Below, in pieces: positions 51,218 through 57,552 of a stretch of 64,000 nucleotides of DNA. Origin of the DNA: Pseudonocardia sp. HH130630-07 (GTDB taxonomy: Bacteria; Actinomycetota; Actinomycetes; Mycobacteriales; Pseudonocardiaceae); assembly GCF_001698125.1 (NCBI RefSeq), contig NZ_CP013854.1:3162001-3226000 (forward strand), in the 5' to 3' direction. The notes under the pieces are model-generated. The model was not told the DNA's origin. It searched no databases and worked only from the letters and a program-made list of their open reading frames with translations. How positions within the stretch are numbered: position 1 is the stretch's first letter; every line of letters starts with the position of its first letter. The position numbers and the translations under genes were made by a program.

Positions 51218-51303
51218 AGACCCCAAGATCGTCGGGCCTGTGCAAGGAACGGTGGTTCCGGCCCGACACGCCGGGCTCGGGTCCGGTGGGATGGGCACTG
51301 TGA

Positions 51304-52392
51304 GTGATGACATCGGACCTTGTGGGTTCAGCCAAGGATGAGACGGGTTCAGGGCGTCAGCTCTCGCCCGAGCAGGCCGCCGCGGCGGCGATGGTGGCCG
51401 ACGCGCGAGCACGCGGCCTGGAGCTGACCGGCCCGGATGGGCTGTTGAAGCTGTTCACCAAGAACGTTCTGGAGACTGCGCTCGGGGAGGAGATGACCGA
51501 GCACCTCGGGCATGCAAAGAACCGGGCCGACCCGGACCGGGAATCGACGAACAACCGGAACGGTCACCGGTCGAAGACGGTGATCTCCGATGCTGTCGGG
51601 GAGGTCGAGATCGAGGTGCCGAGAGACCGCGACTCGACGTTCGAACCCCAGATCGTTCGGAAACGGCAACGGCGGTTGGGGGATGTCGATGAGATCGTGT
51701 TGTCGCTGTACGCGAAGGGTTTGACGACCGGGGAGATCTCGGCGCATTTCTCGGAGATCTACGGGGCGTCGGTGTCGAAGGAGACCGTCTCACGGATCAC
51801 CGACTCGGTGATCGCCGAGATGCAGGAATGGGTGTCGCGGCCACTCGATGCGGTGTACGTCGCGGTCTTCGTGGACGCGATCATGGTGAAGGTCCGCGAC
51901 GGGCAGGTCGCCAACCGGCCCGTCTACGCGGCGATCGGGGTCACCGTCGACGGCCGCAAGGACGTGCTGGGCCTGTGGGCCGGCTCCGGTGGTGAGGGCG
52001 CGAAGTTCTGGCTGGGGGTGCTGACCGACCTGCGTAACCGCGGCATGCGGGACGTGTTCTTCCTGGTCTGCGACGGGTTGAAAGGCCTGCCCGAGGTGGT
52101 GGAGAACGTGTGGCCACAGACCATCGTGCAGACATGCATCGTGCACTTGATCAGGAACTCGTTCCGGTTGACGTCGCGGCGTGACACCGATGCGATCAAG
52201 CGAGGGATTCGGGCGATCTACACGGCCCCCACCGCCGACGCCGCTCTCGCTGCTCTCGATGACCTCGACGAGAAATGGGGTCGCACTTATCCGGCGATGA
52301 TCCGGTTGTGGCGCAACGCCTGGACCGAGTTCGTTCCGTTCCTCGACTACGATGCCGAGATCCGTGCCGTGTTGTGTTCGACGAACGCGATC
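51304..52392 (+). pseudogene. IS256 transposase, 5' part (interrupted)
   Basis: The 363 codons before the break encode an IS256-type DDE transposase with QIVRKRQRRLGDVDEIVLSLYAKGLTTGEI and the first catalytic Asp in VAVFVDAIMVKVRDG. The second is in FLVCDGLKGLPEVV, with HLIRNSFR after it. The gene stops matching at CSTNAI, directly before the catalytic Glu codon, where the IS110 element begins. Reading on into IS110 adds 44 unrelated residues to a stop at 52524. GTG 51304 or ATG 51307 is the start. The transposase cannot be functional as is. Confidence 0.92.
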
Positions 52393-52411
52393 TGGGTGTT
52401 TAGATCAAGGA

Positions 52412-52600
52412 GTCGGTCAGGGCGTTGCTTCCCCGGCCGATGCTCGAGGCGGCCAGCCCTGACTCTGAACGCTATTGACGCCGTGAGGCTGTCTTCGATT
52501 CGAAGTGTCGGGCTGGCCGCGTGAGCGCAGGCCCGCGGTGCCTGGCTTGAAGAGAGCCTGCCTGACTCAACCCAGATCTGCCGACACCGCGGGCCTGCGC
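52412..52600 (+). ncRNA. Predicted IS110 bridge RNA
   Basis: The left end folds into two stem-loops. Target loop: outer stem GGCCAGCCC(T)GAC (52451-52463) with GTCGGGCTGGCC (52507-52518), inner hairpin GACGCC-GTGA-GGC(T)GTC (52477-52493). Between them are GAACGCTAT (52467-52475), nearly the left target GAACGCGAT, and GATTCGA (52497-52503), complement of right target TCGAATC. Donor loop: 16-bp stem (52525-52540 with 52585-52600) enclosing AAGAGAGC (52550-52557), identical to the element's right end, and ACCCAGA (52570-52576), complement of TCTGGGT at its left end. The RNA start near 52412 is inferred from the junction promoter. Confidence 0.85.
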
Positions 52601-52631
52601 TGTCCACGATAGGCCACGCAGACGGGAACAA

Positions 52632-53747
52632 GTGTTGACGCACGAACACGGTGTCGCGGGGATCGATCCTCACAAGAATACGGCTACCATCGCAGTCCTC
52701 GATCATCGAGGCGGCGTGGTCGACAACAAGTCCTTCTCCATCACCAAGGGCGGTATCGATGAGCTGCTGACGTTCCTGCTCGGTGTCGAGCTGACGATCG
52801 ACCGGATCGGCATCGAAGGATCGGGATTTCTCGGCCAGCCGCTGGTCCTCGCGCTCGCGGCCGCGGGTTACGACGTGCGCGAAGTCCAAGCCAACCGCAC
52901 CGCGGAGCGGCGTAAGCGTCGTCGTCGGGCCAAGACCGACGCCGAGGACGCGGAGGCCATCGCCCGAGAGGCCCTCAGCGACCCCGAGCTGCCTCCGGCC
53001 GGGAAGCACACCGCGCCCAGCCCGACATGGCAGACGCTCACGGTGATCCGCGACTGGCGTGAATCTCTTGTCCTGCAGCGTGTTCGGCTGCTCACCGAGT
53101 CCGAAGCAGTACTCGTCACGCTCCCCGTCGCCATCCGCGCCACGTTGCCCTCGACCAGCCGCGTTCTCCCGCAGCTCCAGTCCCTGGTCGACGGCGTCGC
53201 GAACCCCGATCTGCTCAGCCCAGCCGAGCGGCTCAAGCTCGACCGGCTCGCGGCCAGCCTGAACGACATCATCACCCTGACGGCGCGGATCAAGGAACTC
53301 GACCGACAGATTCCCGCCCTCCTCAGCGACCTTGGCTGCACCCTCACAGAGGTCCGCGGTGTCGGCGTGGTCACAGCCATGGATCTTCTGGTCGAGATCG
53401 GCGATCCGTGCCGGTTCACGACCGAGGCCCAGTTTGCACGCTGGTGCGGAATCGCGCCCGTCGCCCTCTCGTCGGGTGAAGGTCACGGGCCGGCCCGTCG
53501 GCACCGACTCGACCTCGGCGGCAATCGAGCTGTCAACTCTGTTCTGCACATCGTGCACGTCACGCAAGTCCGATGCCACCCGCCGGCGAAAGAGTACATG
53601 GCGAAACGGGTCACCGACAACAAGACAAAACGTGAGGCTCGGCGAAGCCACAAGCGGCAGCTCGCGAACATCATCATCAGACACATGTGGACCGACGCAA
53701 GACGCTCCACGGCGACCACACCGACCAGCTCCGCAGCTGCTGCTTGA
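52632..53747 (+). CDS. IS110-family DEDD transposase/recombinase
   Basis: The 371-residue recombinase uses a RuvC-like DEDD site plus a catalytic serine and is guided by a bridge RNA. The RuvC-like domain shows Asp in AGIDPHKNTATIAVLD, Glu in RIGIEGSGFLGQPL and the pair in RRRRAKTDAEDAEAIAREAL. A coiled-coil follows. The C-terminal Tnp domain has VRGVGVVTAMDLLVEIGDPCRF and WCGIAPVALSSGEG, which holds the expected nucleophilic Ser, then RRHRLDLGGNRAVNSVLH. GTG 52632 or TTG 52635 is the start. The gene is intact and ends 12 bases from the element's right end. Confidence 0.93.
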   Translation: MLTHEHGVAGIDPHKNTATIAVLDHRGGVVDNKSFSITKGGIDELLTFLLGVELTIDRIGIEGSGFLGQPLVLALAAAGYDVREVQANRTAERRKRRRRAKTDAEDAEAIAREALSDPELPPAGKHTAPSPTWQTLTVIRDWRESLVLQRVRLLTESEAVLVTLPVAIRATLPSTSRVLPQLQSLVDGVANPDLLSPAERLKLDRLAASLNDIITLTARIKELDRQIPALLSDLGCTLTEVRGVGVVTAMDLLVEIGDPCRFTTEAQFARWCGIAPVALSSGEGHGPARRHRLDLGGNRAVNSVLHIVHVTQVRCHPPAKEYMAKRVTDNKTKREARRSHKRQLANIIIRHMWTDARRSTATTPTSSAAAA

Positions 53748-53759
53748 CAAGAGAGCTTC

Positions 53760-53969
53760 GAATCACTCAACGCCCGCTACCGCCGAGCGGTACGGGCGCG
53801 AGGGCATTTCCCCAGCGAGGCGGCCGCGTTGAAATGCCTGTATCTTGTGACCCGCAGCCTCGACCCGACCGGGCGAGGCCGCGCACGGTGGACGATCCGC
53901 TGGAAGCCGGTGATCAACGCCTTCGCGATCACGTTCGGTGACCGCTGGCCGTCCGCCGAGCACTACTGA
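53760..53969 (+). pseudogene. IS256 transposase, 3' part (interrupted)
   Basis: The remaining 69 codons begin with the catalytic Glu: ESLNARYRRAVRARGHFPSEAAALKCLYLV, ending ITFGDRWPSAEHY. They are in frame with the 5' part once the IS110 element is removed, which restores the standard STNAIESLN motif. The stop is at 53967-53969. Confidence 0.92.
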
Positions 53970-53996
53970 CCAACAACGCCGGAACCACCGTTCCTG

Positions 53997-54202
53997 TTAC
54001 AGACCCTGATGTCCAGGCAGGTTGGTCAGGCGACTGATCGGCGGTAGGCCGTTGGTTGCGCTGTGGGGCCGGTGGTGATTGTAGAAGTGCAGCCAGCCGG
54101 GGAGCGCGTCTCGCCGAGCCGTTTCGCAGGGGTGGAAGCGGGCGTATGCCCACCCGTCGGCGAGGGTGCGGTGGAAACGTTCGATCTTGCCGTTGGTCTG
54201 AG
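53997..54202 (-). pseudogene. IS481 transposase, 3' part (interrupted)
   Basis: On the minus strand QTNGKIERFHRTLADGWAYARFHPCETARRDALPGWLHFYNHHRPHSATNG is the C-terminal end of an IS481 DDE transposase, including the catalytic Glu in NGKIERFH. The frame reads through the element end at 54007 and takes its TAA (53997-53999) from the abutting IS256 terminal repeat. Confidence 0.88.
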
Positions 54203-55123
54203 AGCGTGTTTGAGAAGGGTCGGCGTGTCTGCGCTGGATGCGTCCGGGTGTGGTCCATCGTGGAGGAGTGGCTCGGCGTAGGCGGCGGTACCCCTCGGAC
54301 ACCAGCGATGAGCAGTGGGCGTTGATCGAGCCGCTGCTGCCAGCGGCGGGGGCGGGAGGCCGGCCGGAGAAGCACGCGCGCCGTGATGTGGTGGATGCGA
54401 TCCTCTACGTCGTGCGCGCCGGGTGCGCGTGGCGGGCTCTACCAGTGGATTTCCCGCCGTGGCAGACGGTGTACTGGTACTTCAACCGGTGGGAGCAGCA
54501 GAGGGTCACCGAGCAGATCCTCCCGATCGTGCGCCGTCAGCTACGCGCTGATGAGGGCCGCGACCCCGAACCCAGCGCGGGGATCATCGACTCGCAGTCG
54601 GTGAGGGGCGCTGACACGGTCGGGCGGGACACCCGCGGCTATGACGCCGGGAAGAAGGTCAACGGTCGGAAGCGGTTCATCGTGACCGACACCCTCGGCC
54701 TGCTGCTGACCACGATGGTGTGCTCGGCGTCGGTGCAGGACCGCGATGGCGCCAAGTCGATCCTGCTCGACCTCTACCTGCGCACGAGGGTGCGGTTCGT
54801 CTACGCCGACGCCGGGTTCGCCGGGCGCCTGCTGGACTGGGCGACCACGATCCTGCACACCAGCGTCGAGATCGTGCGCAAACCGCCTGAGCAGCGCGGA
54901 TTCGCCGTCCTCCCGCGGCGGTGGGTGGTCGAGCGGACCCTGGCCTGGGTCACCGCACACCGCCGCCTGGCCCGCGACTACGAACGCCACCCCGCAGTGT
55001 CCGAGGCCATGATCCGCTGGGCGGCGATCAACACCATCACCCGCCGCATCGCCCGTGGCGAACCCGCCCGACGCCAGCAGAAGTACGTAGTCACACCCTC
55101 AACATGATCTTCTCAAACACTCT
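54203..55123 (+). mobile_element. IS5-family element inserted in IS481
   Basis: Inverted ends AGCGTGTTTGAGAAG (from 54203) and AGAGTGTTTGAGAAG (inward from 55123) differ at one base. CTGAG flanks both sides (54198-54202, 55124-55128) as the target duplication. Removing element plus one CTGAG rejoins the IS481 frame as RPQTNGKIE. Confidence 0.92.
54238..55107 (+). CDS. IS5-family transposase
   Basis: The 289-residue DDE transposase is intact. Its N-terminal domain is RYPSDTSDEQWALIEPLLPAAG, then GRPEKHARRDVVDAILYVVRAGCAWRALPVDFPPWQTVYWYF. The catalytic core has Asp in GIIDSQSVRG, then GYDAGKKVNGRKRFIVTDTLGLLL, Asp in VRFVYADAGFAGRL, and Glu in RRWVVERTLAWVTAHRRLARDYER. Starts at ATG 54238 or GTG 54268 are both possible. 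It is a single open frame, unlike the IS5-type element at 57.6 kb. Confidence 0.92.
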   Translation: MRPGVVHRGGVARRRRRYPSDTSDEQWALIEPLLPAAGAGGRPEKHARRDVVDAILYVVRAGCAWRALPVDFPPWQTVYWYFNRWEQQRVTEQILPIVRRQLRADEGRDPEPSAGIIDSQSVRGADTVGRDTRGYDAGKKVNGRKRFIVTDTLGLLLTTMVCSASVQDRDGAKSILLDLYLRTRVRFVYADAGFAGRLLDWATTILHTSVEIVRKPPEQRGFAVLPRRWVVERTLAWVTAHRRLARDYERHPAVSEAMIRWAAINTITRRIARGEPARRQQKYVVTPST

Positions 55124-55124
55124 C

Positions 55125-55918
55125 TGAGGCCGGTAGGGCCGGGTTCGCTTGTGGGTGATGCCCAGTTCGCTGCAGGTGTCACGCCAGGCGTGTGAGCGGT
55201 AGCAGCTGCCGTTGTCGGACAGGACCCGTTCGACGGTCACGCCGCGGGCGTTCAACCAGTCCACGGCCCGGCGTAGCACACCGGTGGCGGTGTCGGCTTT
55301 CTCGTCGCTGTGGATCTCGGCGTAGGCGACGCGGGAGTGGTCGTCGATGACGGTGTGGACGAACGCTCTGCCGGTGCGCGGCTTGTAGTCGGTTCCCCTG
55401 GGCAGCCCGGGAGTGGACCGCTTGTTCAGGGCGCCTTGTCGGCGTCCGACGAAGCGGTGTCCGCCTCCGTCGGGGATGTTGCCGAACTTGGTGACGTCGA
55501 CGTGGATCAACGAGCCGGGGTGTGGGTGTTCGTAGCGGCGTAGGGGCTCGCCGGTGACCCGGTCGATGTGGGAGAGCCGGTTGATCCGGCAGCGGCGCAG
55601 GACCGCGTGCACGGTCGAGGCGGCGAGAGCGAGTCGGCCGCCGATCTGTACTGGTCCGAGTCGGTGGTGCCACCGCAGTCGCACGATCTGCTTCACCAGC
55701 CTCGGCGGGGTCTTGGCCGGCATCGACCGTGGTCGGGAGCTGCGGTCGACCATCCCGGGCGGGCCCTCGGCGCGGTAGCGGTCAGCCCACTTTCGGGCGG
55801 TGCGAGGGGCGACCATGAACATTCTGGCCGCGGTGGAGCAGGTCCAGTCCTGGTCGGCGATCAGACGGGCCAGCCGTAGCCGGGCACGCGGAGTCAGCGC
55901 AGCGTTAGCGTGGGTCAC
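55125..55918 (-). pseudogene. IS481 transposase, 5' part (interrupted)
   Basis: From GTG 55918 the 264 codons give the IS481 helix-turn-helix (LTPRARLRLARLIADQDWTCSTAARMFMVAPRTARKWADRY). The rve core follows, with Asp in LIHVDVTKFGNIPDGGGHRF and FVHTVIDDHSRVAYAEIHSDEK, and ERVLSDNGSCYRS. The match ends at RTRPYRPQ, where the IS5 element begins. The catalytic Glu is on the other side of the insert, so the protein is dead. Confidence 0.9.
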
Positions 55919-56043: not shown

Positions 56044-57552
56044 TATGGAGGTCACTTCTGTCAAGTGGGCAGGGGTGATCGGCCCCTCGATATCTGGTAT
56101 CGGGGCTGCTCAGGGCGGTTGTGGGCCCGACGGGGCCGGGTGGGTGGAGGCGTGTCGGCTCGACGCGCGGTCAGACTGATATACGCGGGTTGGTCACCGC
56201 ATGACCGGGTGTTCGTCGGGAGCGTTCCGCGAGTCTAGGGGCGAGCGTCGCCTCGTCCCGAGCTGATCGGGGCTGAGCTGCTCATAGCTGTATCGCGGGT
56301 CGCTCCTCGCGCTGCCTGCATCCTCTCCCGACTCCCGCCGGGGTCTGTGGCGGCCGAGCCAGAGGCTCAGCCGGTTCTCGCTGCGGCCGTTTCCTCGAGG
56401 GTGGCCAGGCTCCAGCACCAGCCGGCGAGCTCGCGGGCGACCGCGACGACAGCCACGGTCGGTCGCTTGTTGCGGTGGTCCAAGCGGGTCCAGCGCTGGT
56501 GCAGGCGCCGGTTCCCGGCGTCGGCGCGGTCGCGGACCACGGCGGGTTGCCCATCGGCGCGTCGGGCCCGTTCCCGGCTCGGGCGCAGCGGGCGGCGGTG
56601 GTGCCAGGCCGCTTCGACCAGCAGCCGCCGGGCATGCGAGTTACCGGTCTTGGTGATCCCGCCCTGGACCCGCCGCGACCCGGAGGAGAACTCCGAGGGC
56701 ACCAGCCCGAGGTAGGAGCCGATGGTGGCGCCGGTGAACCGGTGCCAGTCGGCGACCTCGACGCACAGCCCGGTCGCGGTCAGCGTCGAGACGCCCCGCA
56801 GACACGACAGCCGCCCGACCGGCCCGGCCAACACCGGGTCGCTGGCGGCCATCTCGACGATCGCAGCGTCGAGCCGAGCCCGGCGGGCATGGACGGTGAA
56901 CACCGCATCCAGGGCCTCGTCGAAGGCGAGCTGGACACCGCGCCGGTCGAAGTGGTGACTGCGCAGCCAGACCTCGTGCGCGGCGGTCCAGGCGGTGTTG
57001 TCCCAGACCAGGCCCTGGCGCAGCAGCAGCTTGGAGAGACGGTGGCGGGCCCGCATCAGGTCGCTGCGGCAGTCCTCGCGAGCCCGGACCAGGTCCCGGG
57101 CGGCTTCTTCGGCCTCGGTCGGGACCCGCACCCCGGGGACCTCACCGATCCGCAGCAACCGCGCCAGCCGCTCCGCGTCGCGCCGGTCGGTCTTGACCTT
57201 GTCCCCGGACGGTCGCTCGATCTTCGACGGCGCCACGACCTCGCAGGCCACACCCGCGGCCCGCAGCGCCCGCGCCAGCCCGAATCCGGTCGGGCCGGCC
57301 TCGTAGCAGGCCATCACCGGACCGGGCTGCGCACGCACCCACTCCACGATCTGCTCAGTCCGCGCCCCGATCCGCTGCGTCCGGATCTCAGCTGCACTCT
57401 CCTCGATCGCGCAACCGATCACTGATCGCGCATGGACGTCCAACCCGACCCACGTACCCTCGCCCGACACCGGCGCCTCCCCGTAAATGCGGCACCGTCA
57501 CCCAACGACGGCGACCCGCGCCAACTTACGAGCGGAGGCGCCGGCCTCCATA
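56044..57552 (-). mobile_element. IS110-family element of the IS1111 subgroup
   Basis: Short inverted repeats TATGGAGG (56044-56051) and CCTCCATA (57545-57552) bound about 1.5 kb containing one transposase gene on the minus strand. The 320 bases after the gene (56044-56366) are non-coding and hairpin-rich (for example GCCCCTCGATA...TATCGGGGC at 56083-56105). In IS1111 elements the bridge RNA is encoded on that side. The outer bases (seven on the left, four on the right) touch the IS481 end and the next IS5-type target duplication. Confidence 0.75.
56367..57470 (-). CDS. IS1111-type IS110 transposase
   Basis: The 367-residue DEDD recombinase is intact. Acidic residues lie in TWVGLDVHARSVIGCAI, VMACYEAGPTGFGLARAL and GDKVKTDRRDAERLARLLRIGE. 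The C-terminal domain has LSCLRGVSTLTATGLCVEVADWHRF, and LGLVPSEFSSGSRRVQGGITKTGNSHARRLLVEAAWH with the expected Ser. GTG 57470 is the start. It is only distantly like the IS110 transposase at 52.6 kb, so the two elements are independent arrivals. Confidence 0.92.
   Translation of the reverse strand: MSGEGTWVGLDVHARSVIGCAIEESAAEIRTQRIGARTEQIVEWVRAQPGPVMACYEAGPTGFGLARALRAAGVACEVVAPSKIERPSGDKVKTDRRDAERLARLLRIGEVPGVRVPTEAEEAARDLVRAREDCRSDLMRARHRLSKLLLRQGLVWDNTAWTAAHEVWLRSHHFDRRGVQLAFDEALDAVFTVHARRARLDAAIVEMAASDPVLAGPVGRLSCLRGVSTLTATGLCVEVADWHRFTGATIGSYLGLVPSEFSSGSRRVQGGITKTGNSHARRLLVEAAWHHRRPLRPSRERARRADGQPAVVRDRADAGNRRLHQRWTRLDHRNKRPTVAVVAVARELAGWCWSLATLEETAAARTG

What the first reader, a model, noticed from the sequence alone, without database searches (positions are those of the whole stretch)
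52393..52631. A bridge RNA whose four guides can be read off this copy's own ends and target
The IS110 left end folds into two loops with all four expected guides. Left-target guide GAACGCTAT matches the flank GAACGCGAT (8 of 9). Right-target guide GATTCGA complements TCGAATC after the insert. Left-donor guide AAGAGAGC is identical to the element's right end. Right-donor guide ACCCAGA complements TCTGGGT at the left end. Each guide sits in an internal loop closed by long stems (12 and 16 bp), and an inner hairpin separates the target guides. The strand rule (left guides same sense, right guides complementary) agrees with the IS621 model. Bridge RNAs are known for IS110; this one appears to be a new example in a high-GC actinomycete.
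Basis: partly seen in the sequence, partly recalled or inferred. Interest (0 to 1): 0.9.

Follow-up and report, generated by a model that had tools for sequence, protein, structure and literature searches.

The report
RNA-guided jumping gene targeting rival transposons
A small bacterial jumping gene carries an RNA whose guide sequences match the places where it sits, and most of those places are the active-site code of a rival family of jumping genes, which it interrupts.

Summary
Confirmed and extended. Window 52393-53757 is an IS110-group element whose left end encodes a bridge RNA. Unoccupied copies of the interrupted gene fix the shared core as TC, not IS621's CT; with that core both 'handshake' dinucleotides also match.

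The genome holds 14 copies at four target genes: ten in one IS256 (Mutator) type, two in a second, one in a third Mutator transposase, one elsewhere. At the Mutator sites the insertion falls directly before the catalytic-glutamate codon. Eight of ten readable relatives sit in the same motif; two with changed left guides have targets that fit them. Genome-wide, the guide-encoded 14-mer survives uninterrupted only at three IS256 copies.

Four of seven unoccupied type-1 IS256 copies carry small indels exactly at this site and none elsewhere, suggesting cutting or imprecise excision with end joining (unproven).

Bridge RNAs are known, and an IS110 aimed at a rival's catalytic codons is published (ISEc21 on IS3). 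So this is a new member of a known kind with an unusually readable target record.

The parts
52391..52392 (+). left copy of the TC core
   Evidence: shared by empty target and both element ends
52393..53757 (+). IS110 element without cores
   Evidence: comparison with unoccupied IS256 copies
52400..52405 (+). possible -10 (TTAGAT) 17 nt after the right-end TTGACA in the circular form; weak match
   Evidence: read by eye; the linear scan found none
52412..52605 (+). probable extent of the bridge RNA (ends inferred)
   Evidence: fold and covariation; no expression data
52413..52440 (+). 5' stem-loop
   Evidence: coordinates
52449..52520 (+). target-binding loop
   Evidence: coordinates
52467..52476 (+). 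left target guide GAACGCTATT
   Evidence: 7 of 8 non-core positions match the left flank
52477..52493 (+). inner hairpin between the target guides
   Evidence: coordinates
52497..52503 (+). right target guide GATTCGA; 52504-52505 AG is the handshake dinucleotide for the donor
   Evidence: handshake rule from PMC11208158 passages, applied by eye
52524..52601 (+). donor-binding loop
   Evidence: coordinates
52550..52557 (+). left donor guide AAGAGAGC
   Evidence: identical to right end at 53749
52570..52576 (+). right donor guide ACCCAGA; 52577-52578 TC is the handshake dinucleotide for the target
   Evidence: complements core plus left end
52632..53747 (+). IS110 recombinase gene, 371 aa
   Evidence: PF01548 and PF02371 over cut-off; IS621 8wt6 E 6.5e-10
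53744..53749 (+). TTGACA in the right end, candidate -35 of the circle-junction promoter
   Evidence: present in the seven right ends shown
53758..53759 (+). right copy of the TC core
51234..52392 (+). 5' part of the interrupted type-1 IS256 element, transposase frame from 51304
   Evidence: PF00872 E 1.5e-111; left end GGGCCTGTGCAA read by eye
53758..54006 (+). 3' part of the interrupted IS256 element, starting with core and the catalytic Glu codon GAA

Best explanation
This is the bridge RNA of an IS110-group element. After excision as a circle the RNA is probably made from a promoter formed across the joined ends. Its donor loop pairs with the joined ends (AAGAGAGCT-TC-TGGGT), its target loop pairs with a site of the form GAACGCnA-TC-GAATC, and the recombinase exchanges strands at the shared TC. 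The target guides read the Asn-Ala-Ile / Ile-Glu-Ser codons around the catalytic glutamate of IS256/Mutator transposases, so the element lands in and breaks copies of a rival transposon family. Shown by sequence: anatomy, covarying stems, guide-target matches at four own target genes and in most relatives, insertion point. Inferred: transcription, pairing, strand exchange, circle.
For: Fold z -4.52. Seven left ends: 18 of 49 pairs change on both sides somewhere against 8.7 in shuffles, 0 of 500 as high; slid controls 2 to 5. Four own target genes match 12, 10, 10 and 9 of 13 non-core positions. Genome-wide the 14-mer AACGCNATCGAATC is uninterrupted only at 3 IS256 copies. Two relatives with changed left guides fit their own targets 8 of 8 with wobble, where the window's guide fits 7 (L097) and 6 (L128) of 8. 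Both IS110 domains.
Against: No expression or recombination data. Guides are nearly invariant in the clade, so guide-target covariation rests on two elements. L066 fits poorly (6 of 13, P 0.076). LTG has a fixed mismatch at Ala third base in the window's target. Position 9 of the core is C, where IS621 prefers T. No Rfam family over its gathering score and no promoter in the linear left end.
Confidence: 0.92

Rival explanations
1. The recombinase protein alone picks the site; the left-end structure is a regulatory RNA or DNA hairpin and the guide matches are coincidence or descent.
For: Guides are almost unchanged among relatives, so most of the agreement could be inherited together with the target preference; L066 does not fit.
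Against: Four matches in the strand pattern of IS621, both handshake pairs, covarying stems, and the changed left guides of L128 and L097 that fit their own targets better than the window's guide does.
Confidence: 0.04
2. The ten insertions in type-1 IS256 are not separate guided events: one interrupted IS256 spread, helped in trans by intact copies.
For: Same point in every copy; nine IS110 copies vary at one position; occupied copies share some haplotypes (L016 with L084, L085 with L086).
Against: Six haplotypes among the 8 fully aligned occupied copies; separate insertions into type-2 IS256, a third Mutator gene and L018. Gene conversion could also mix haplotypes, so the number of events is open.
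Confidence: 0.25
3. The indels at unoccupied type-1 IS256 sites are ordinary slippage or old polymorphism, unrelated to the recombinase.
For: The 4-nt and 5-nt deletions lie between 3-nt repeats (CGA, ATC); two of four scarred copies share one deletion; the CTT copy (L038) is also the most diverged, with a cluster of substitutions about 35 nt upstream. The type-2 control copies are identical to each other over 1266 nt, so they may simply be younger.
Against: No other indel in 1341 aligned columns of 16 copies. Type-2 sites 0 of 8 against type-1 4 of 7, Fisher p 0.026, or 0.055 with the shared deletion counted once. CTT is what the element's right end reads next to the core. Ku is encoded.
Confidence: 0.35

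Closest known systems
IS621 and its bridge RNA (PMC11208160, PMC11208158; passages read)
   Same: Recombinase domains, long left end with 5' hairpin, target loop and donor loop, strand rule of the guides, handshake dinucleotides, candidate promoter across the joined ends
   Different: TC core instead of CT; RTG pairs 5 bases beyond the core; target is coding DNA of IS256 transposases, not REP sequences
ISEc21 (IS110 family; PMC11187229, passage)
   Same: IS110-family element with upstream non-coding RNA that targets catalytic codons of a rival insertion sequence's transposase
   Different: ISEc21 hits codons around the second D of IS3-family transposases; this one hits the E of IS256/Mutator transposases. 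Sequences of the two elements were not compared
IS4321/IS5075 (title seen in a reference list only)
   Same: Target another mobile element (terminal repeats of Tn21-family transposons)
   Different: IS1111 group with subterminal repeats; target is a terminal repeat, not a catalytic codon

Membership tests
IS110 group | DEDD RuvC-like domain plus C-terminal Transposase_20 domain | tested here: met
   PF01548 65.2 bits (cut-off 29), PF02371 62.8 bits (cut-off 21.3); D, E, D, D and the Ser-Gly align with IS621
IS110 group | Long non-coding left end upstream of the gene, short right end | tested here: met
   239 nt before the gene, 10 nt after its stop before the right core
IS110 group | Insertion at a short core shared by target and element, with sequence-specific target | tested here: met
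   TC core and four guide-matching target genes
IS621-type bridge RNA | 5' hairpin, target loop and donor loop with covarying stems | tested here: met
IS621-type bridge RNA | Four guides with left same-sense, right complementary | tested here: met
IS621-type bridge RNA | CT core with nearly invariant T at position 9 | tested here: not met
   core is TC; this is a preference of IS621 and close orthologues, not a family requirement
IS621-type bridge RNA | RNA expressed and bound by the recombinase | not testable with these tools
   no expression or binding data
IS110 group | Circular intermediate | not testable with these tools
   needs PCR or sequencing of the host

The most novel reading that the evidence does not exclude
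The bridge recombinase leaves broken DNA at its targets or at sites it left, repaired by end joining, so that even IS256 copies without the insert are sterilised: of 17 known type-1 IS256 copies here, 10 are occupied and 4 scarred. In addition the guides are tuned to codons: U stands opposite third codon positions (Ile, Glu, Ala), so that G.U wobble accepts synonymous codons and the rival can hardly escape without losing its catalytic residue.
Probability: 0.3. Interest if true: 0.75.

Novelty: new member of a known kind. Interest (0 to 1): 0.5.

Why it matters
One genome holds one nearly unchanged guide RNA together with its used, unused and damaged targets, a natural specificity record. With ISEc21 on IS3 it makes two cases of an IS110 aimed at the catalytic codons of another transposon family, which may be a general strategy. 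The indels bear on whether IS110 excision is always scarless: one paper says so (PMC11208160), another did not detect the rejoined target for the IS1111 relative ISEc11 (PMC11187229).

Tried and rejected
Core as CT or AT/TT: rejected, because only TC is shared by the empty target and both element ends, and only TC makes both handshake pairs match (by eye). Rfam 52300-53900: two matches, both far below gathering scores. Promoter and terminator scan of the linear left end: none. Plasmid DNA search: no match; plasmid protein search at 1e-40: 1 record. Viral contigs: none. Close relatives were absent from the other 61 genomes of the genus and from the 389 others of the family search, where only 5 candidates per genome were scored and one genome had 38% relatives. 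In 394 genomes of the class, 44 matched at 1e-30, the best outside this genome at 38% identity; these distant ones were not studied. A donor-guide pattern with up to 1 mismatch hit 7 of 392 genomes (8 places) and 1 of 22; of these nine places only L128 had a readable element, and the reversed control pattern also hit, so single-mismatch hits are mostly chance. A protein search of 392 genomes gave 2. Looking for scars in relatives: unoccupied IS256 copies were few and one was masked. L072, L075, L076 and L077 gave no readable ends or are distant, and are left out of target counts. In one search L070 had no readable right side and L066 did not fit. In one search one occupied copy (L021/L093) was dropped and L009 aligned only over its 3' part. 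One search scored 40 of 82 candidates, so more unoccupied or scarred IS256 copies may exist; the count of three intact sites also rests. L018's left flank was tested in one open frame only and had no Pfam match.

Full report
What is there. The frame 52632-53747 is an IS110 recombinase: PF01548 and PF02371 are over cut-off and IS621 (8wt6) is the best solved relative, E 6.5e-10. It sits inside a Mutator/IS256 transposase gene (PF00872, E 1.5e-111).

Borders and core. Unoccupied copies of the same IS256 read GAACGCGA-TC-GAATCACTC; occupied junctions read GAACGCGA-TC-TGGGTG and AAGAGAGCT-TC-GAATC. Only TC is common, so the core is TC and the element is 52393-53757. IS621 uses CT with T at position 9 almost invariant (PMC11208158, passages). 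With TC as positions 8-9, RTG plus handshake (GATTCGA+AG) pairs TC-GAATC of the target and positions 6-7 (CT) of the donor; RDG plus handshake (ACCCAGA+TC) pairs TC-TGGGT of the donor and positions 6-7 (GA) of the target. This is the handshake rule of PMC11208158 met in both loops of the window's copy; I applied it by eye. Some relatives differ at these dinucleotides (for example L067 and L066).

RNA structure. The fold of 52400-52610 has z = -4.52. Seven left ends (window, L071, L066, L097, L067, L069, L128) share a 5' hairpin, a target loop with an inner hairpin and a donor loop. Of 49 pairs, 18 change on both sides somewhere (shuffles 8.7, 0 of 500 as high); sliding the partner gives 2 to 5. 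The structure came from the same alignment, which favours it over the slid versions. The guides hardly change while the stems do.

Chance. In 20000 shuffles of the left end the four single matches arose 3334, 253, 143 and 256 times, and two or more together 108 times.

Target record in this genome. There are 14 copies: 10 in IS256 type 1, two in IS256 type 2 (L020 and the partial copy L083), one in a third Mutator transposase (L019) and one elsewhere (L018). Nine uninterrupted copies differ at 0 or 1 of 1369 positions. Guide matches over 13 non-core positions are 12 (type 1), 10 (L018), 10 (L020) and 9 (L019); of 8105 TC sites in the window none reaches 10 and about 2 reach 9. In the whole genome AACGCNATCGAATC is present uninterrupted and exact at three places only, the three intact type-1 IS256 copies; 12 places have one mismatch, eight of them type-2 IS256.

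The target is a catalytic codon. The interrupted proteins end TNAI, TNTI or TTIPI and continue after the insert with ES. The type-1 protein aligns with the ISCth4 transposase (6xg8) up to chain position 350. By my count chain numbers run 3 above the paper's (D175 is chain 178, D241 chain 244), so the next residue is E348. The paper names D175, D241 and E348 as the active site (PMC7780238, passages). The insertion thus falls directly before the catalytic Glu codon.

Relatives. Ten have at least one readable end: L066, L067, L068, L069, L070, L071, L097, L128, L073 (L074 has the same right flank) and L138. Eight of the ten lie in the same motif; L066 and L067 do not. Two of the eight (L073, L138) were judged from the right flank only and one (L070) from the left only; L069 has a Gln codon after the insert. 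Pfam was run on four interrupted Mutator genes (window, L019, L020, L128), all PF00872; the other relatives were judged by translation. L128 and L097 have changed left guides that fit their own targets 8 of 8 with wobble counted (7 and 8 without); the window's guide fits those targets 6 and 7 of 8. However, L097's guide would also fit the window's own target better (8 of 8) than the window's guide does (7), so the fit is not exclusive. L066 fits poorly (6 of 13). Mobilicoccus caccae carries the element with the same guides at two different genes that share CAACGCCATCG around the insertion point (L067, L068).

Codon reading (inference). The left guide reads AAC GCU AUU (Asn-Ala-Ile); in L128 it reads AAU CCG AUU (Asn-Pro-Ile). 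The right guide has U opposite the third base of the Glu codon. Among ten IS256-type target genes with a readable right flank, 7 have GAG, 2 GAA and 1 CAG, yet GATTCGAA is in all eight relatives' loci checked, and U can pair A or G. For Ala the guide's U does not fit the commonest codon GCG. Wobble acceptance is not tested here.

Scars. Seven unoccupied type-1 IS256 copies were found: three intact, one with 5 nt missing, two with the same 4 nt missing, one with CTT in place of AT. In 16 aligned copies and 1341 columns there is no other indel. All three kinds shift the reading frame. Eight unoccupied type-2 copies have the site intact, but they are identical over 1266 nt and so may be too young to have collected scars. 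Fisher p = 0.026, or 0.055 if the shared deletion counts once. The CTT copy has further substitutions about 35 nt upstream. The genome encodes Ku. I read this as recombinase cutting or imprecise excision repaired by end joining; slippage at 3-nt repeats remains possible.

Age (inference). The IS256 type-1 copies vary by substitution at 17 columns (plus the 6 target-site columns) of 1341, the nine IS110 copies at one of 1369. The IS110 probably spread after its targets had diversified; occupied copies show six haplotypes among eight fully aligned.

Literature. Bridge RNAs and their covariation with target and donor are established (PMC11208160, passages). Targeting a rival's catalytic codons is described for ISEc21, which inserts at codons for and around the second D of certain IS3-family transposases (PMC11187229, passage). 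I found no paper on an IS110 aimed at IS256 in searches, which cover open-licence PMC papers only; ISfinder and supplementary files were not searched. PMC11208160 says IS110 elements excise scarlessly; PMC11187229 did not detect the rejoined target for ISEc11. All papers were seen as listings or passages, none in full.

Verdict. The element is an IS110 in kind, unusual in its TC core, its target choice and the clear record of used, unused and damaged targets in one genome.

Noticed in passing
window 56367-57470 (-): A second IS110-family recombinase frame, 367 aa, with PF01548 and PF02371; its ends and guide RNA were not looked for.
   Followed up: no
window 54238-55107 (+) and 55091-55918 (-): An IS4/5-type transposase and an IS481-type transposase next to the element: the region is a cluster of insertion sequences.
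   Followed up: partly
L084 6591-9389 and L083 3632-4682: A type-2 IS256 appears to sit inside IS110 copies near element position 319-323, while IS110 copies sit in type-2 IS256: mutual nesting of the two families.
   Followed up: partly
L142, L146, L147 (genome G1020): Unoccupied IS256 copies read AACGCTATCGAGTC, whose Ala codon GCT matches the window's left guide exactly; the genome holds a partial relative (L138) in another Mutator gene.
   Followed up: no
L097 2743-2744: This relative has TT at the left core and TC at the right, so its two cores differ.
   Followed up: no
L066 2069-3437: A relative whose target fits the guides poorly and whose right end reads CATC instead of CTTC; unexplained.
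   Followed up: no
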